From Chryseobacterium salipaludis (lineage in GTDB: Bacteria; Bacteroidota; Bacteroidia; Flavobacteriales; Weeksellaceae): DNA of 64,000 nucleotides. The notes under the pieces are model-generated. The model did not search any database. It saw nothing but the letters and a program-made list of their open reading frames with translations, and had not been told where the DNA came from. The stretch spans positions 248,001-312,000 of the forward strand of contig NZ_JALHKS010000002.1 in assembly GCF_022968825.1 (NCBI RefSeq). The letters are read 5' to 3'. The translations under genes and the position numbers were made by a program. Shown here piece after piece: positions 5,376-22,005 of the stretch; within the stretch, counting starts at the first letter, position 1; the number at the start of each line of letters is the position of its first letter.

Positions 5376-5383
5376 CAAAAATA
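5376..5383 (-). promoter_or_regulatory. TAnnTTTG box upstream of the photolyase cassette
   Basis: Minus strand reads TATTTTTG, 73 nt before the TIGR03643 ATG. It is the only box of this type in the 190-nt gap after fabG, so it may drive the decayed cassette, but the match alone is weak evidence. Confidence 0.35.
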
Positions 5384-5492
5384 GCCCCGACGGAAACGGC
5401 ATCCTCCCGGGCAGGCGACAGCCGGACTGGGAGATACAGTGGACGGCGGGACGCAGCTTCAGATAAAGCCGGACCTTTCTGCTCCTAAAAAA

Positions 5493-9778: not shown

Positions 9779-12219
9779 ATTATACGGCAGGAGAAATCGC
9801 AAAAATAACCGGCGCTGAACTAATCGGTAAGCCTCATGTTCCGGTGCGCCACATTGCTTTCGACAGCCGGAATATCTATGCCGTTAAAAAAGCTGCCTTC
9901 GCGGCCCTGAGTACAGATAAGAATTCAGGTGAAAAATATATAGGTTCGGTTATCGAAAAAGGCGTGCAGGTCATCATCAGTACGAAAGTGATCGAACAAT
10001 ATCACGATGTTACGTGGATTATTACCGATAATGTTCTGAATCTCTTGCAGATGCTCGCGCATTTTCACGTGAAACATTCCCAGATAAAAACAATTGGGAT
10101 TACAGGCAGTAATGGCAAAACAATCCTGAAGGAATGGTTGTATCAATGTCTTTCTCCGTTGTTTCACACGGTTAAAAGTCCGAAGAGTTTTAATTCACAA
10201 TTGGGCCTGCCCTTGTCTTTGCTTAATATCAATGAAGATCATCAGCTCGGAATTTTTGAAGCCGGAATTTCCAAGCCAGGTGAAATGGATATTTTAAGTT
10301 CCATTTTTTCACCTGAGATTGGGGTATTTACGCATATCGGCACCGCGCATGAAGTGAATTTTAAAGATACGCAGCAACTCATCAGCGAAAAGCTGAAATT
10401 GTTTCGCGATTCGGAAGTGATTATTTACAATGCAAGTCATCCGGAAGTCCGCTCGCAGATTCAAAACACGTATCCGGACAAAAGACGTATTGGTTTTGGC
10501 CTGGAAGCGGGACAGGATATTTATATTAAAAATAACTGGCGCGACCGGTCGCAGGAAGTGACTGTTGTTTATAAAGAAGAGGAAATTTCCGTACCGGTGC
10601 ATCAGCGCGATGAAGCGACGCTTTCCAATATGTTGTGCCTGATCGCTGTGCTGAAGGAATTTCAACTGACCAACGAGGAAATTGTTGCTAAAATCAATGC
10701 CCTGCGCGCAGTGGAAATGCGGCTGGAAAGTGTGGTGGGCGTGCGCAATAATCTTATCATCAATGATTCCTACAACCTAGATCTCGACTCGCTGAAAATC
10801 GCTTTTCAAAATGTCCAGGAATATAACCGTGATAAGAAGACTTTAATCGTGACCGACTTTATTGAAGGCCGCGATGAGGAGGAGCTGTACCGCGAAGTAG
10901 CGGAACTGACCAACGAGCAGCAGTTTGATTCGGTATTCCTCGTGGGAGAAAATATTACGAAACTGGAAAAACTGTTTAATGCGGATGTTTTTACGTTCAC
11001 GGATACAGAAGCCCTGCTGACCAGTGGAGAGATACAGCAGCTGGAAAACCGGCTTATTTTGCTGAAGGGCGCACGCCGTTTCGGGATAGACCGCGTGAAA
11101 ACACAGCTGGAATTACAAAAGCATGATACGGTGCTGGAAGTGAATCTCAATGCGATTCTTCATAACATCAATATTCATAAAAGCCTGCTGAAACCGGAAA
11201 CCAAAATGATGGCGATGGTAAAAGCTTTTTCATACGGCCTGGGCGGTTATGAGATTGCAGAATTCCTGCAGCATCATCACATTGATTATCTTGGCGTTGC
11301 CTTTGCCGATGAGGGCGTGGATTTACGCAAAAACGGCGTTACGGTACCGGTGATTGTGATGAACCCTGAGCAGCACAGTTACCAGACGATTATTGACTAC
11401 AATCTGGAGCCGGAAATTTACAGTTTCCGTGTGCTCGAGTTCTTTTATGAAAAACTGCAGCAAAACGGATTTTCGGAGCCCTACCCGATCCATCTGAAAC
11501 TGGAAACGGGCATGAACCGGTTGGGTTTCAAACCGGAGGAATTACCGGAATTGCTGCAATTGCTTGCTACTATGAATGTGCGCGTGAAATCGGTTTTCAG
11601 CCATCTTTCTTCGGCAGATGATCCTGCAGAAAAAGAATACTCGCGTGAGCAGATTTCTATCTTTAAAAACAGTGCAGAAACGGTTGCAAAAGGGTTGGGA
11701 TATCAGCCGCTGCGACATATCCTGAATTCTGCAGGAATTGTGCATTTTCCCGGAGCGCAGTTTGAAATGGTGAGGATCGGCATCGGGATGATTGGTATTT
11801 CCCCGGAAGCAGCACTGCAGAAAAAATTGAAAGGTGCCGTTCGTTTTAAAACCGTTATCTCCCAGATTTCTACTGTGAAAGCAGGCGAATCGATTGGATA
11901 TAACCGGCGTTTCCGTGCAGAAAAAAATACGCGTATTGCCACGATTCCCGTTGGCTACGCCGATGGTATTCCAAGGCTGCTCAGTAACGGTGTGGGAAAA
12001 GTAGGCATCGGCGGTCAGCTCTTTCCTATCGTAGGGAATGTGTGCATGGATATGCTGATGGTCGATATTCAAAATGCACCGGCCAAGGAAGGAGATGAAG
12101 TAATCCTATTCAACAGTTCCCCTACCCTGCAGGAATTTGCAGTATATTGCAATACAATTCCTTATGAGGTGCTGACCTCAGTTTCGCGCCGCGTGAAACG
12201 GATTTACATTAAAGATTAA
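9775..12219 (+). CDS. murF-alr: Bifunctional UDP-MurNAc-tripeptide:D-Ala-D-Ala ligase / alanine racemase
   Basis: An 814-residue fusion of two consecutive cell-wall enzymes. Residues 1 to about 445 are a MurF ligase with P-loop GSNGKT at 111-116, the family EAGISKPGEM motif and a C-terminal domain containing NDSYNLDLDS. From about 452 an alanine racemase begins (LEVNLNAILHNI), with the PLP-binding Lys near 483 (MAMVKAFSYG) and the catalytic Tyr near 708 (SIGYNRRF), then TIPVGYADG. The fusion is known in Bacteroidota: one part makes the D-alanine chemistry used by the other. The gene overlaps tdk by 4 nt and abuts the next gene with no gap. A parS-like sequence is embedded in codons 96-101. 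Confidence 0.95.
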   Translation: MNYTAGEIAKITGAELIGKPHVPVRHIAFDSRNIYAVKKAAFAALSTDKNSGEKYIGSVIEKGVQVIISTKVIEQYHDVTWIITDNVLNLLQMLAHFHVKHSQIKTIGITGSNGKTILKEWLYQCLSPLFHTVKSPKSFNSQLGLPLSLLNINEDHQLGIFEAGISKPGEMDILSSIFSPEIGVFTHIGTAHEVNFKDTQQLISEKLKLFRDSEVIIYNASHPEVRSQIQNTYPDKRRIGFGLEAGQDIYIKNNWRDRSQEVTVVYKEEEISVPVHQRDEATLSNMLCLIAVLKEFQLTNEEIVAKINALRAVEMRLESVVGVRNNLIINDSYNLDLDSLKIAFQNVQEYNRDKKTLIVTDFIEGRDEEELYREVAELTNEQQFDSVFLVGENITKLEKLFNADVFTFTDTEALLTSGEIQQLENRLILLKGARRFGIDRVKTQLELQKHDTVLEVNLNAILHNINIHKSLLKPETKMMAMVKAFSYGLGGYEIAEFLQHHHIDYLGVAFADEGVDLRKNGVTVPVIVMNPEQHSYQTIIDYNLEPEIYSFRVLEFFYEKLQQNGFSEPYPIHLKLETGMNRLGFKPEELPELLQLLATMNVRVKSVFSHLSSADDPAEKEYSREQISIFKNSAETVAKGLGYQPLRHILNSAGIVHFPGAQFEMVRIGIGMIGISPEAALQKKLKGAVRFKTVISQISTVKAGESIGYNRRFRAEKNTRIATIPVGYADGIPRLLSNGVGKVGIGGQLFPIVGNVCMDMLMVDIQNAPAKEGDEVILFNSSPTLQEFAVYCNTIPYEVLTSVSRRVKRIYIKD
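10061..10076. other. parS-like site inside murF-alr (14/16)
   Basis: ATTTTCACGTGAAACA differs from TGTTTCACGTGAAACA only at the first two positions. In the protein it encodes part of AHFHVKH. Confidence 0.5.
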
Positions 12220-14817: not shown

Positions 14818-14833
14818 AGTTTCACGTGAAACA
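14818..14833. other. parS site (15/16) just upstream of mnmG
   Basis: AGTTTCACGTGAAACA, matching the ParB consensus except for the first base; the inner 14-mer (14819-14832) is a perfect palindrome. It lies 12 nt before the mnmG ATG in the 46-nt gap after ybeY. Confidence 0.8.
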
Positions 14834-16705: not shown

Positions 16706-17547
16706 TGTTTCACGTGGAACAAAACAAATTGAAAGTTAGAGATCATTTTTTAACGCAGGAAGAATTTAAATTAGAGCCCACAGAGATTCCAGACGTATGG
16801 AAGACCGCTCCCCTACCTGATGATCTGGCGCCGTATTATGAAAGTACCGAGTATATCTCCCATCATCAGGATTCCGGCACCGTAAAGGAAAAGGTCTACA
16901 AATTTTTTCAGAGCTTTAACCTTCTTTATAAAAAAAATATTCTGCTGGATTTTTTTGATAAAGGAGTTACGGTGCTGGATTATGGCTGCGGAGCGGGAGA
17001 ATTTCTGGTACAGGCTGAAAAAGATTTCAGCACCATTGGCTGCGAACTGAATGCTACCGCCCGCACGGCTGCACAAAAAAAAGCAGTTAAAACAAAGTTT
17101 GTTTCTTCGCTCGATGAAATTGCCGATGATTCGCTGGATGTCATTACACTCTGGCATGTTTTCGAGCATATCGGTAATCAACAGGAAATGCTGGAATTGT
17201 TTCAGCGAAAATTAAAAGCTAATGGTAAACTGATCATCGCAGTACCTAATCCCACTTCTTATGACGCGAGAAAATATAAAGAATTCTGGGCCGCGTATGA
17301 TGTTCCCCGGCACGTTTTTCATTTCGGAAAAAATGGGTTTAAGAAATTAATGTCAAAAAATAACTGGCGGGTTATTTCCGAACGGCCTTTGTTGCTGGAT
17401 GCCGTTTATATTTCCATTTTAAGTGAACAATATAAAAAATCCACCTTTGCATGGCTAAAAGGAGCAGTTTACGGAGTCATTTCTAATTTTAAAGCGATTT
17501 CAGACGGTCAATACTCCAGCCTGATATATATACTAGAAAAAAAATAG
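16705..17547 (+). CDS. Class I SAM-dependent methyltransferase
   Basis: 280 residues. The SAM-binding motif I is VLDYGCGAGEFL near residue 90, motif II-like DVITLWHVFEHI follows, and the later AVPNPTSYDARKY and WAAYDVPRHVFHF resemble methyltransferases acting on small lipid or sugar substrates (Methyltransf_23 type). The substrate cannot be told. The first codons (MFHVEQ) are encoded by a parS-like sequence, so the true start could lie a few codons downstream; no better ATG is near. It probably ends the tdk operon, with a bidirectional terminator after it. Confidence 0.82.
   Translation: MFHVEQNKLKVRDHFLTQEEFKLEPTEIPDVWKTAPLPDDLAPYYESTEYISHHQDSGTVKEKVYKFFQSFNLLYKKNILLDFFDKGVTVLDYGCGAGEFLVQAEKDFSTIGCELNATARTAAQKKAVKTKFVSSLDEIADDSLDVITLWHVFEHIGNQQEMLELFQRKLKANGKLIIAVPNPTSYDARKYKEFWAAYDVPRHVFHFGKNGFKKLMSKNNWRVISERPLLLDAVYISILSEQYKKSTFAWLKGAVYGVISNFKAISDGQYSSLIYILEKK
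16706..16721. other. parS site (15/16) over the methyltransferase start codon
   Basis: TGTTTCACGTGGAACA, one mismatch to the ParB consensus. It includes the last two bases of the ATG at 16705 and the next codons. Confidence 0.78.
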
Positions 17548-17632: not shown

Positions 17633-18823
17633 TTATGCATTGATTGCTTTCACACCCGGAAGCTCTTTTCCTTCCAGGCTTTCAAGCATGGCACCTCCGC
17701 CGGTGGAAACATAGGACACTTTATCATCGTAGCCGAACTTTTTAACAAAGGCTACACTATCCCCTCCGCCAACGAGCGAGAAGGCACCCTCTGCAGTAGC
17801 CGCCGCAATACTGTCGCCAAGCGCCACGGTTCCGGCTGCGAAATTTGGCATTTCAAAAACACCCATCGGTCCGTTCCACAAAATAGTGCGTGAATTACGG
17901 ATTACCTCATCCACATCCCGGCGCGTGCGTTCTCCCACATCCAGACCCATCCAGCCTTCCGGGATATCGTAGATATCAGCTTCCTGAGTTTCTGCGTCAT
18001 TACTGAAATCATCTGCAATAATCGCATCAGACGGCAACAGAATTTCCACGTTCATTGACTTTGCTTTTTCCAATATGTCCAGCGCGAGCTTTAATTTATC
18101 TTCTTCTACCAGTGATTTACCAACATGGCCGCCTAGTGCTTTTATAAAGGTAAATGCCATACCGCCACCGATAATCAAATGATCTACCGCCGGCAAAATA
18201 TTTTCGATGATGGTAATCTTGCTGGAAACCTTAGAACCACCCAGCACCGCTGTTACAGGTTTTTCACCCGTTTTCAGAACTTTATCAATAGCTTCCAGCT
18301 CTTTAGCCATCAGTAATCCAAAGAAACGTGTCTCCGGGAAAAACTGCGCGATCACCGCGGTGGAGGCATGCTCTCTGTGCGCTGTACCAAAGGCATCGTT
18401 CACATAGGCATCAGCATACGCGGCCAGTTTCTTTGCAAAATCCAGATCACCATTTTCTTCCTCTTCATAGAAACGAACATTTTCCAGCAGCAGAATTTCA
18501 CCGTCCTTTAAATTGCCGGTCATGTTTTCCGCATCTTCTCCCATACAATCCGGGCAGAATTTTACCGGTCTGCCTAATACTTTTTCAATTTCAGGTACCA
18601 GATTTTTCAGTGAAAACTCTTCAGATGCTTTTCCTTTCGGACGTCCCAGGTGGGTAAGCAAAATCACAGCACCGCCATCATTCAGAATTTTATCAATAGT
18701 TGGCTTGGCTGCCTGAATCCGCGTGTTATCCGTGACCTGCAGATCGGCACTTTGCGGAACATTGAAGTCCACACGAACCAGCGCCTTCTTGCCTTTGAAG
18801 TTAAAGTCATTCACTGTTTTCAT
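17633..18823 (-). CDS. pgk: Phosphoglycerate kinase
   Basis: 396 residues, standard for bacterial PGK, which transfers phosphate from 1,3-bisphosphoglycerate to ADP in glycolysis. Signatures are RVDFNVP near the N-terminus, LLTHLGRPKG, ENVRFYEEE, GGSKVSSKI, NGPMGVFEMPNF and the C-terminal STGGGAMLESLEGKELPG. It is transcribed alone from a TAnnTTTG box 24 nt upstream of its ATG and points away from the predicted origin. Confidence 0.97.
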   Translation of the reverse strand: MKTVNDFNFKGKKALVRVDFNVPQSADLQVTDNTRIQAAKPTIDKILNDGGAVILLTHLGRPKGKASEEFSLKNLVPEIEKVLGRPVKFCPDCMGEDAENMTGNLKDGEILLLENVRFYEEEENGDLDFAKKLAAYADAYVNDAFGTAHREHASTAVIAQFFPETRFFGLLMAKELEAIDKVLKTGEKPVTAVLGGSKVSSKITIIENILPAVDHLIIGGGMAFTFIKALGGHVGKSLVEEDKLKLALDILEKAKSMNVEILLPSDAIIADDFSNDAETQEADIYDIPEGWMGLDVGERTRRDVDEVIRNSRTILWNGPMGVFEMPNFAAGTVALGDSIAAATAEGAFSLVGGGDSVAFVKKFGYDDKVSYVSTGGGAMLESLEGKELPGVKAINA

Positions 18824-18847
18824 AATAAATACCTGTTTAGTTTTTTA

Positions 18848-18855
18848 CAAATTTA
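18848..18855 (-). promoter_or_regulatory. TAnnTTTG box, probable pgk promoter
   Basis: Minus strand reads TAAATTTG, 24 nt before the pgk ATG. Confidence 0.7.
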
Positions 18856-18985
18856 GGATTAATTCCGCTGTGGCGAAACTATTTCCCGCTTTTAAAATCC
18901 ACAATTCCCCGGCCTTTCAATTATCACCATTATCTTCTTTTTTTTAAAATAAATAAATGAGTACTGTTGTTGTAGATGTGAGTTT

Positions 18986-18994
18986 TGTGGAAAA
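18986..18994 (-). other. DnaA box, 8/9
   Basis: Minus strand TTTTCCACA, one change from TTATCCACA, close to the AT-rich tract at 18928-18960. Confidence 0.5.
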
Positions 18995-19085
18995 GAAAAC
19001 CTGATAAATTTGTTGTGATGATCCTCCGCAGCTTTTAAGAGATTACTCACATTTTGAGCAGATGATTAACAGCCGTTTAGATGCT

Positions 19086-19105
19086 TTTTCCACAATTGTG
19101 GATAA
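19086..19105. other. Inverted pair of DnaA boxes
   Basis: TTTTCCACA on plus (19086-19094) and a perfect TTATCCACA on minus (19097-19105), two bases apart, face to face. Confidence 0.75.
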
Positions 19106-19243
19106 CCTTTGTTTTAATAAAACGTTAACAGTTTTAGTCGGGATAAAACCACAGCGGATTCGTGGAAAGATTTAAAAACATTTTTCGCTTTTGTGAAATA
19201 CCCTTCAGCCATAATGAAAAGAGATAAGCCTGGCAAGGGAAAG

Positions 19244-19262
19244 TTGTTCACAGTTATCCACA
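19244..19262 (+). other. Tandem pair of DnaA boxes
   Basis: TTGTTCACA (19244-19252) and a perfect TTATCCACA (19254-19262) in direct orientation, one base apart. Confidence 0.75.
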
Positions 19263-19366
19263 CGCTGTACCCCATCCGTCCGCACGATAGGGTTAGTAAA
19301 CCTGTTTTTGTTTTTTTAATTATCAAGAACCTTCTTCACCGGCAACGGATTTCTTATTTAATATCT

Positions 19367-19374
19367 TAAATTTG
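19367..19374 (+). promoter_or_regulatory. TAnnTTTG box, probable rpiB-rnr promoter
   Basis: TAAATTTG, 24 nt before the chosen rpiB ATG. Confidence 0.65.
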
Positions 19375-19398
19375 TTGAGCACTATATACTTTATATAT

Positions 19399-19833
19399 AT
19401 GAAAAAGATTGCGATTGCCTGTGACCATGCAGGTTTTGAATACAAAGAATACATTAAGGCACAGCTGGATGGGCAGTACGAGATTGAAGACTTCGGTACT
19501 TATTCCGAAGCTTCGGTCGATTATCCGGATTTTGTACATCCTGCGGCCACTTCCGTTTCGGAAGGCAAAAACGAATTGGGAATTTTAATCTGTGGCAGTG
19601 GAAACGGGGTACAGATGACCGCAAACAAGCATCAGGATATCCGCTGCGCTCTGTGCTGGATGCCGGAACTTGCTGCTCTGGCGCGTCAGCATAATAATGC
19701 CAATATGATTGCCATGCCGTCCCGCTTTATTGCCAAAGAACTGGCGCTGGAAATTGTGGACCGATTTCTGAATACCGACTTCGAAGGAGGACGCCACAAT
19801 GAGCGGGTGCGCAAAATAGGTTGCGGCCTTTAA
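19399..19833 (+). CDS. rpiB: Ribose-5-phosphate isomerase B
   Basis: 144 residues of the RpiB/LacAB family, which interconverts ribose-5-phosphate and ribulose-5-phosphate in the pentose phosphate pathway. MKKIAIACDHAGFEYKEY at the N-terminus, ASVDYPDFVH, and LICGSGNGVQMTANKH are the substrate-binding and catalytic signatures. I start it at the ATG of 19399; an upstream in-frame start at 19372 overlaps the promoter box. rnr follows after 15 nt, probably in the same transcript. Confidence 0.94.
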   Translation: MKKIAIACDHAGFEYKEYIKAQLDGQYEIEDFGTYSEASVDYPDFVHPAATSVSEGKNELGILICGSGNGVQMTANKHQDIRCALCWMPELAALARQHNNANMIAMPSRFIAKELALEIVDRFLNTDFEGGRHNERVRKIGCGL

Positions 19834-19848
19834 TTAAATACTACTTTT

Positions 19849-22005
19849 ATGGCCAGAAAAAGAAAATATATTTCCGAAAAGAATAACCATAAGCTGCGCG
19901 AAATCGGACGCCTGATTCTTAAATTTATGAATCAGAAAACCAGTAAGTTATATAATTACAAACAAATTGCAGACGGCATTGATTACCGGAATCCGCGCCA
20001 GCGTGAGCAGGTGATTCAGGCGCTGCACCAGTTGCTGGCAGAACAGCGCATCAAAGAAACCGAAAAAGGAAAGTTCAGCATTAACCTTAATATAGAAGGT
20101 ACGCTTACCGGGATCATTGATTTTAATCAGACCGGCAATGCGTATGTAAATGTGGAAAACCTGGATGATGACATTTTTATCCATTCCAAGAATGTGAAGG
20201 ATGCTTTGCAGGGCGATAAAGTGCTGATAGTCACCTACAATTTCAAAGGACGCAAAATGGAAGGTGCTGTGGTGAAAGTGCTCGAGCGCAGCCGTACCGA
20301 ATTTGTGGGAACCTTTCAGTTTATTAAGCACAAAGATTTTGGTTTCGTTGTTGGGGATAAAAAGAAGATAAACACCGATATCTTCGTGCCGAAAGGAAAA
20401 ATCGGCGGTGCCGAAGATGGGGATAAAGTAGTCGTGCGCATGCTCGACTGGAAAACCGGTGAGAAAAACCCGGAAGGCGAAATTATTCAGGTGCTGGGTG
20501 CGCCCGGTGCCCACGAAACAGAAATCCATTCCATCCTGGCTGAATATGGTTTACCGTACACCTTTCCTGAAGAAGTGGAACGGGACGCTTCCGGCCTGGA
20601 TCGTGAAATCCGTGATGAAGAAGTAGCTAAGCGGCGTGACATGCGCGATATCTGTACCTTCACCATCGACCCGAAAGATGCCAAGGATTTTGATGATGCC
20701 TTATCCATCCAAAAACTGAAGAACGGCAACTGGGAAATCGGCGTTCACATTGCCGATGTTTCGCATTATGTGGTGCCCGGTACAAAGCTGGATGATGAGG
20801 CTTATAACCGCGCCACTTCAGTCTATCTGGTTGATCGTGTGGTTCCTATGTTGCCTGAAGTGCTGAGTAACGATGTCTGCTCACTGCGTCCCAATGAGGA
20901 TAAATATACCTTTTCGGTTGTCTTTGAAATGACCGAAGATGCGGAAATAAAAAAAGAATGGTTCGGACGTACTGTCATTCATTCGGACCGGAAGTTTGCG
21001 TATGAAGAAGCACAGGAACGCATCGAAACCGGACAGGGCGAACTGGCCGAAGAAATACTGGCACTGGATGCTTTGGCTAAAATCCTGCGCCGCCGCCGTA
21101 TTGATAACGGAGCCATTACCTTTGATCGCAGTGAAGTTCGTTTTAACCTGGACGAAAATAATGAACCCATTGGCGTTTACTTTAAAGTAAGCAAGGATTC
21201 CAACCACCTGATTGAAGAATTTATGCTGCTGGCCAACCGCAAAGTTTCCGAGTTTATCTCCCTGAACCGCCGCGGCACGCCTACCGATAATACCTTTATT
21301 TACCGTGTACATGATGATCCGGATCCCGCCAAACTGGAAGCCTTGCGCGAATTTGTGGGAACGTTTGGATATAAAATGAATCTGGCCAATACCAAAAAAG
21401 TAGCGGAATCACTGAACCGTTTGTTGCAGGATGTAAAAGGTAAAGGCGAAGAAAATATGATTGAAACGCTGGCCATGCGCTCGATGAGCAAGGCCTTCTA
21501 CTCCACCATTCCTATCGGGCATTACGGGTTGGGCTTTGAATATTATTCCCACTTTACTTCCCCGATCCGCAGATATCCCGATTTAATTGCACACCGTTTA
21601 CTACAGCACTATCTGGATGGTGGCAAATCTCCCGCTAAACCCGAATACGAAGAGAAATGCAAACACTGCAGCAACATGGAAAGGCTGGCTTCCGATGCCG
21701 AGCGCGATTCCATTAAGTTTATGCAGGTGAAGTTCATGGAAAAACATGTGGGCGAGCAGTTCACCGGTGTGATTTCCGGTGTAGCAGATTTTGGGTTTTG
21801 GGTACAGATTCCGGAAAATGGTGCCGAAGGGCTCATCAAACTGCGTGACCTGATGGACGATTCCTATTCGTATGACGCTAAAAATCATTTGGTTCAGGGA
21901 AGCCGCACCGGAAATACCTACCAGCTCGGCGATGAGGTCAAGATAGAAGTCGTGAAAGCCAACCTGCTGCAGAAGCAGTTGGATTTCCGTATCATTGCCT
22001 CATAA
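19849..22005 (+). CDS. rnr: Ribonuclease R
   Basis: 718 residues of the RNase II/RNB family, a processive 3'-to-5' exoribonuclease that degrades structured RNA. The order is an N-terminal helix-turn-helix-like region (about 10-75), cold-shock domains, the RNB catalytic domain with DPKDAKDFDDALS near residue 280 holding the metal-binding Asp residues, then a C-terminal S1 domain (EQFTGVISGVADFGFWVQI). The length and presence of both cold-shock regions and S1 fit RNase R (VacB). Downstream of rpiB in one unit. Confidence 0.96.
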   Translation: MARKRKYISEKNNHKLREIGRLILKFMNQKTSKLYNYKQIADGIDYRNPRQREQVIQALHQLLAEQRIKETEKGKFSINLNIEGTLTGIIDFNQTGNAYVNVENLDDDIFIHSKNVKDALQGDKVLIVTYNFKGRKMEGAVVKVLERSRTEFVGTFQFIKHKDFGFVVGDKKKINTDIFVPKGKIGGAEDGDKVVVRMLDWKTGEKNPEGEIIQVLGAPGAHETEIHSILAEYGLPYTFPEEVERDASGLDREIRDEEVAKRRDMRDICTFTIDPKDAKDFDDALSIQKLKNGNWEIGVHIADVSHYVVPGTKLDDEAYNRATSVYLVDRVVPMLPEVLSNDVCSLRPNEDKYTFSVVFEMTEDAEIKKEWFGRTVIHSDRKFAYEEAQERIETGQGELAEEILALDALAKILRRRRIDNGAITFDRSEVRFNLDENNEPIGVYFKVSKDSNHLIEEFMLLANRKVSEFISLNRRGTPTDNTFIYRVHDDPDPAKLEALREFVGTFGYKMNLANTKKVAESLNRLLQDVKGKGEENMIETLAMRSMSKAFYSTIPIGHYGLGFEYYSHFTSPIRRYPDLIAHRLLQHYLDGGKSPAKPEYEEKCKHCSNMERLASDAERDSIKFMQVKFMEKHVGEQFTGVISGVADFGFWVQIPENGAEGLIKLRDLMDDSYSYDAKNHLVQGSRTGNTYQLGDEVKIEVVKANLLQKQLDFRIIAS

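What the first reader, a model, noticed from the sequence alone, without database searches (positions are those of the whole stretch)
18856..19366. Candidate oriC between pgk and rpiB
The longest gene-free stretch of the window lies between divergent genes and carries two perfect DnaA boxes (19097-19105 minus, 19254-19262 plus) and three near-perfect ones, arranged as an inverted pair and a tandem pair, next to AT-only tracts. By simple arithmetic about 0.5 perfect boxes are expected in 64 kb at random, so two within 166 nt is notable. mnmG, a frequent origin neighbour, is 2.2 kb away, and parS-like sites cluster nearby. There is no dnaA here, so an annotator relying on dnaA would miss it.
Basis: partly seen in the sequence, partly recalled or inferred. 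Interest (0 to 1): 0.82.

Follow-up and report, generated by a model that had tools for sequence, protein, structure and literature searches.

The report
Chromosome replication origin between pgk and rpiB
The 575-base gap between two sugar-metabolism genes in this Kaistella-like flavobacterium is almost certainly where chromosome copying starts; its layout is conserved across the bacterial family, and in the relatives where I measured it, it lies 0.5 to 1 million bases from the dnaA gene that many assemblies use as position 1.

Summary
The 575-bp gap between divergent pgk and rpiB (18824-19398) carries two perfect DnaA boxes, two with one mismatch, and further weaker ones. It is the densest cluster around any of the 30 perfect boxes fetched, of 36 in the genome.

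The oriC interpretation is well supported by independent evidence. (1) Across 42 distinct gaps from the family, about seven box sites stand out at fixed aligned positions. (2) All five parS-like sites of the genome lie within 64 kb; in 15 congeneric genomes every parS site lies within about 80 kb, one or two of them 3-7 kb away on the pgk side. (3) In 12 congeneric genomes all 36 16S genes point away from pgk-rpiB. (4) GC skew in a relative flips within tens of kb of this site. (5) In a sister genus that moved rpiB 54 kb away, the boxes and parS stay with pgk.

In this genome the skew is too weak to decide. A published Ori-Finder prediction for Elizabethkingia (649 bp, three boxes) matches a family member's pgk-rpiB gap in length and box count, so the location is not new in kind.

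One element is unexplained: the most conserved 11-mer, CTACAACAACA, sits where DnaA-trios are expected but lacks their middle adenine.

The parts
18824..19398 (.). Predicted oriC: intergenic region between the divergent pgk and rpiB genes
18921..18929 (+). DnaA box site (TTATCACCA here; TTATCTACA in many relatives), left edge of the AT tract
18930..18957 (.). Candidate DNA unwinding element: AT tract between inward-facing boxes
   Evidence: Second lowest duplex stability in 18400-19900; AT-rich at the same place in relatives
18965..18975 (-). Most conserved 11-mer of the gap, CTACAACAACA on the minus strand; possible derived DnaA-trio element
18977..18985 (-). Weak second box (AAACTCACA, 4 mismatches) abutting the box at 18986
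18986..18994 (-). DnaA box TTTTCCACA
19043..19051 (+). Weak conserved DnaA box (TTACTCACA)
19086..19094 (+). DnaA box TTTTCCACA, left half of the inverted pair
19097..19105 (-). Perfect DnaA box TTATCCACA, right half of the inverted pair
19138..19146 (-). Weak conserved DnaA box (TTATCCCGA)
19244..19252 (+). Near box TTGTTCACA, tandem partner; not conserved in relatives
19254..19262 (+). Perfect DnaA box TTATCCACA, the best conserved of the array (at most 1 mismatch in 86% of 42 sequences)
18848..18855 (-). Probable pgk promoter -7 element TAAATTTG (Bacteroidetes type, TAnnTTTG)
   Evidence: consensus from general knowledge
19368..19375 (+). Probable rpiB promoter -7 element TAAATTTG
   Evidence: consensus from general knowledge
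17633..18823 (-). pgk, phosphoglycerate kinase
19399..19833 (+). rpiB, ribose-5-phosphate isomerase B
16706..16721 (.). parS-like site TGTTTCACGTGGAACA, 1 mismatch
14818..14833 (.). parS-like site AGTTTCACGTGAAACA, 1 mismatch
10061..10076 (.). parS-like site ATTTTCACGTGAAACA, 2 mismatches

Best explanation
The pgk-rpiB gap is the chromosomal origin of replication, oriC, of this Kaistella-like Weeksellaceae bacterium. DnaA, encoded at a distant locus, binds an array of about seven conserved boxes between 18921 and 19262. From the inward-facing boxes at 18921(+) and 18986/18977(-) it opens the AT tract at about 18930-18957, helicase is loaded there, and forks leave in both directions. ParB on the parS sites 2-9 kb to the pgk side then moves the newly copied origins apart. 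Shown here: the boxes, their conservation, the parS placement, the strand and skew switch in relatives, and the retention of the array with pgk after rearrangement. Inferred: DnaA binding, the exact unwinding point and the start of replication itself.
For: Unique dense box cluster in the genome. Across 42 distinct gaps, 1102 aligned windows scanned without prior choice put 19254+, 18986-, 19097-, 19086+, 19043+, 18921+ and 19138- at the top (mean 0.6-2.4 mismatches, against 6.4 +/- 0.9 overall). Divergent pgk-rpiB arrangement in 24 of 29 representatives of 28 genera; two or more boxes upstream of pgk in 25 of 29. All parS-like sites of this genome within 64 kb of the gap; in 15 congeneric genomes all 35 sites lie within about 80 kb, with one or two at 3-7 kb on the pgk side. 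All 36 16S genes in 12 genomes are minus to the left and plus to the right of the locus. G032 raw GC skew -0.014 left and +0.019 right, p 7e-6, best break about 8 kb from the gap; right-minus-left skew is positive in all four relatives tested. In G036 rpiB sits at 103 kb and pgk at 155 kb: boxes and parS are with pgk, none upstream of rpiB. The contig of G032 begins at the pgk start codon. Published Ori-Finder oriC of Elizabethkingia meningoseptica is 649 bp with three boxes (PMC8994065), and a family member's gap is 649 bp with three boxes.
Against: In this genome GC skew on contig C2 is near zero and does not place an origin. In G028 the best-fit skew origin is 270-460 kb away, although that sample is noisy. 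Boxes in several relatives are imperfect, and one genus representative (G086) has none upstream of pgk. No binding or replication data exist here.
Confidence: 0.93

Rival explanations
1. The boxes are a DnaA-regulated promoter or a DnaA-titration site (datA-like) controlling pgk and rpiB, and the origin is elsewhere.
For: Both flanking promoters lie in the gap, and DnaA is known in general to regulate genes and to be titrated by box clusters. TTATCCACA is over-represented across the genome, 36 against 8 for the reversed control.
Against: The promoters sit at the two edges and the conserved array in between does not overlap them. parS, rRNA orientation and skew centre on the same place. When pgk and rpiB were separated the array stayed with pgk and parS.
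Confidence: 0.04
2. The origin lies at dnaA, as in many bacteria and as many assemblies assume by starting at dnaA.
For: Six of the relatives searched begin their contig at dnaA, a common convention.
Against: There is no box cluster next to dnaA in this genome. dnaA is 0.5-1 Mb from the pgk-rpiB gap in relatives. With dnaA as the origin, skew ranks at the middle of all rotations and most 16S genes would face the forks.
Confidence: 0.01
3. The origin lies near parAB, where another inverted pair of perfect boxes occurs (C3:436363 and 436385).
For: Two perfect boxes 13 bp apart upstream of parA.
Against: The pair forms a simple hairpin just past the end of a tonB-like gene, as a terminator would. 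There is no further box array, and no parS on that contig.
Confidence: 0.02

Closest known systems
Predicted oriC of Elizabethkingia meningoseptica G4076 (Ori-Finder, PMC8994065)
   Same: 649-bp region with three DnaA boxes (at most one mismatch), far from dnaA; a family genome held here has a 649-bp pgk-rpiB gap with three such boxes.
   Different: The passages read do not name the flanking genes, and I could not name the genome held here, so identity of locus is inferred from length and box count.
Bacillus subtilis oriC with its basal unwinding system (DnaA boxes plus DnaA-trios; PMC8287927, PMC10721633)
   Same: Adjacent boxes, a short spacer, a trinucleotide motif, then an AT tract, in the same order.
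   Different: Here the trinucleotide element is CTA-CAA-CAA on the box strand (3'-GAT-GTT-GTT-5' on the other), without the middle adenine after the first trio; the origin is not next to dnaA.
Escherichia coli oriC
   Same: Intergenic array of TTATCCACA boxes beside an AT-rich unwinding region, with mnmG (gidA) close by (general knowledge).
   Different: Different flanking genes; no Dam/SeqA features were examined; a parS cluster lies near the origin here.

Membership tests
Bacterial chromosomal origin (oriC) | Cluster of DnaA boxes in an intergenic region | tested here: met
Bacterial chromosomal origin (oriC) | AT-rich, easily melted element beside the boxes | tested here: met
   18919-18958 is the second least stable 40-bp stretch in 18400-19900, bracketed by inward-facing boxes
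Bacterial chromosomal origin (oriC) | GC skew minimum at the site | tested here: inconclusive
   Met in G032 and roughly in G006 and G021; noisy in G028; no usable skew in this genome
Bacterial chromosomal origin (oriC) | rRNA genes transcribed away from the site on both arms | tested here: met
   36 of 36 16S genes in 12 congeneric genomes; none assembled in this genome
Bacterial chromosomal origin (oriC) | parS sites clustered nearby | tested here: met
Bacterial chromosomal origin (oriC) | Replication starts here (depth peak), DnaA binds, supports autonomous replication | not testable with these tools
   Needs reads or bench work
Basal unwinding system (BUS) | DnaA box pair next to the unwinding region | tested here: met
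   18986- box with an abutting 4-mismatch box; many family members have clearer tandem pairs
Basal unwinding system (BUS) | At least three trinucleotides with middle adenine within 16 nt of the conserved box at 18986 | tested here: not met
   None for 18986-; a formal match exists from the weaker box at 18921+

The most novel reading that the evidence does not exclude
In the Kaistella-Chryseobacterium clade the DnaA-trio element of the origin has been replaced by a CAA-repeat element (CTACAACAACA, i.e. 3'-GAT-GTT-GTT-5' on the other strand), read by a DnaA whose single-strand-binding helix has also changed. This would be a natural example of the deviant trio, without middle adenine, that PMC8287927 suspected might exist.
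Probability: 0.3. Interest if true: 0.6.

Novelty: new member of a known kind. Interest (0 to 1): 0.4.

Why it matters
It fixes the origin for most of a family that includes Chryseobacterium, Epilithonimonas and Cloacibacterium, where dnaA is a misleading landmark: dnaA lies 0.5-1 Mb from the origin in the genomes measured (G006, G028, G032), and several assemblies start at dnaA. Growth-rate estimates from read depth, gene-dosage arguments and strand-bias studies depend on getting this right. The conserved CAA element gives a direct test of how far the DnaA-trio rule can vary.

Tried and rejected
GC skew on the window's own contig gave no decision. dnaA and parAB were considered as origin sites and rejected. 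Rfam has no RNA family in the gap. Box-like sites upstream of rpiB in Flavobacterium and some Bacteroidales loci were seen but not pursued; most other Bacteroidota loci have none. A simple NAN-trio search does not explain the most conserved element.

Full report
What was claimed.

The observation. The gap between the pgk start codon (18823, minus strand) and the rpiB start codon (19399, plus strand) is 575 bp. It holds the only two perfect TTATCCACA boxes in the 64 kb, plus TTTTCCACA at 18986(-) and 19086(+) and several weaker boxes. Two perfect boxes in 64 kb is not rare by itself (7 of 100 shuffles); the clustering is. The window is G000:C2:248001-312000 of a 2.53-Mb, 22-contig genome with 36 perfect boxes, and none of the other places fetched has as many boxes within 500 bp. 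The neighbours are as stated: a MurF/Alr fusion, a patatin-like protein, YbeY, MnmG, a methyltransferase-like protein, Pgk, RpiB and RNase R. By its relatives (Kaistella, Epilithonimonas and Chryseobacterium records; some genus loci have gaps that look identical to those of named Kaistella records) this is a Kaistella-like member of the Weeksellaceae.

Conservation of the array. In the genus, and in the named close relatives, pgk and rpiB are divergent across a 550-800 bp gap with boxes at nearly fixed distances from pgk. I aligned 46 gaps (42 distinct) and scored every aligned 9-mer on both strands against TTATCCACA, without choosing sites. Seven sites stood out: 19254+, 18986-, 19097-, 19086+, 19043+, 18921+ and 19138-, with mean mismatches 0.57 to 2.38 against 6.39 +/- 0.89 over 1102 windows. 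Individual boxes change between TTATCCACA, TTATCAACA, TTTTCCACA and TTATCTACA but stay boxes. Over 29 family representatives from 28 genera, 24 keep the divergent gene pair and 25 have two or more boxes upstream of pgk. The conserved TAAATTTG promoter elements of pgk and rpiB lie at the edges, outside the array (the promoter consensus is general knowledge).

Chromosome-scale evidence. All five parS-like sites (up to 2 mismatches) of this genome lie on the same contig within 64 kb of the gap. In 15 genomes of the genus all 35 sites (up to 1 mismatch) lie within about 80 kb, with one or two always 3-7 kb away on the pgk side. In 12 congeneric genomes (11 in one contig, G008 in two) every one of 36 16S genes is on the minus strand to the left and the plus strand to the right of the locus, circularity considered (tally by hand). 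The nearest 16S genes lie about 0.3 Mb to either side, so this alone gives an interval of about 0.6 Mb. GC skew narrows it: in G032, sampled, raw skew averages -0.014 on the left arm and +0.019 on the right (Mann-Whitney p 7e-6; one 5-kb window was counted twice), with the best break about 8 kb from the gap and a broad optimum of some 50 kb (the antipode was taken as terminus). In G006 third-position skew changes sign between -79 and +71 kb. Fits with free origin give -89 to -79 kb (G006), -9 to +20 kb (G032), -107 to -37 kb (G021) and, poorly, -459 to -269 kb (G028). This genome has no usable skew on its contig.

A natural experiment. In G036, of another genus, rpiB lies at 103 kb and pgk at 155 kb. 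The box array and both parS sites are beside pgk; upstream of rpiB there is none. The array is therefore not an rpiB control element.

Alternatives. dnaA is 0.5-1 Mb from the locus in G006, G028 and G032, has no box cluster beside it in this genome, and fits neither skew nor rRNA orientation. The second pair of perfect boxes, on C3 upstream of parA, is a short hairpin just past the end of a tonB-like gene, without an array or parS.

Mechanism. The likely order is: DnaA on the array; opening of the AT tract 18930-18957, which lies between inward-facing boxes at 18921(+) and 18986(-); helicase loading; bidirectional forks; ParB-parS segregation. Binding and opening are inferred, not shown.

The odd element. 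The most conserved 11-mer of the gap, ahead of both promoters, is CTACAACAACA on the minus strand, 10 nt past the box at 18986 and followed by the AT tract. In 45 of 46 gaps a box with at most 2 mismatches is followed within 27 nt by CAACA. With CTACAACAACANTANTCAT and up to one mismatch, this genome has a single hit, at this place. In G074, of another genus, the same position reads TTATCCACA-TATCAACAG-CC-CTATTATTACAACTATTATTATT, a textbook DnaA-trio run that includes one CAA. So the CAA element is probably the homologous, derived trio. But B. subtilis DnaA works with adenine or cytosine in the middle of each trio and less well with thymine (PMC10721633), and the element gives thymine there; the box at 18986 has no standard trio run. 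PMC8287927 explicitly suspects such deviant trios. DnaA of the clade reads EKFIQQF where the deeper-branching genera mostly read EKFTQQF, at the position corresponding to the trio-contacting helix (the B. subtilis alignment is from memory apart from the published Asn187). That difference follows the family tree and proves nothing by itself. A formal trio run also exists from the weaker box at 18921 on the other strand, so which strand is engaged is open.

What is known. Origins away from dnaA are known in general, and Ori-Finder predicted one in Elizabethkingia meningoseptica at 740,720-741,368, 649 bp with three boxes, with dnaA at 2.61 Mb (PMC8994065). A family genome of about 4.2 Mb (G103) has a 649-bp pgk-rpiB gap with exactly three boxes. 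I found no paper in the library that names pgk-rpiB as the origin (titles, abstracts and selected passages only), and the DoriC tables themselves could not be read.

Verdict.

Noticed in passing
window 18965-18975 (-): CTACAACAACA is the most conserved 11-mer of the gap and occupies the DnaA-trio position, but lacks the middle adenine.
   Followed up: partly
L031 and L256-L277 (DnaA genes): DnaA of the Kaistella-Chryseobacterium clade has KDHSTVMYA instead of RDHATVLHA in the DNA-binding domain and I instead of T before the trio-contacting position.
   Followed up: partly
G006, G012, G066, G079, G084, G089 contig starts: These contigs begin at dnaA, while pgk or rpiB maps at 1.0-2.9 Mb in contig coordinates, so position 1 is not at the predicted origin.
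   Followed up: partly
L022 1501-1531 (C3:436363-436393): Hairpin made of two inverted perfect DnaA boxes between a tonB-like gene and parA.
   Followed up: partly
window 5379-5457 (+): Flavo-1 RNA, above the Rfam gathering score.
   Followed up: no
L125, L134, L152, L153, L156, L158, L161 upstream of rpiB: TTATCAACA sites recur at similar distances upstream of rpiB in Flavobacterium and some Bacteroidales, without pgk; they might be origins or coding conservation.
   Followed up: no
whole genome G000: TTATCCACA is over-represented (36 against 8 for the reversed control), mostly as scattered single boxes.
   Followed up: no
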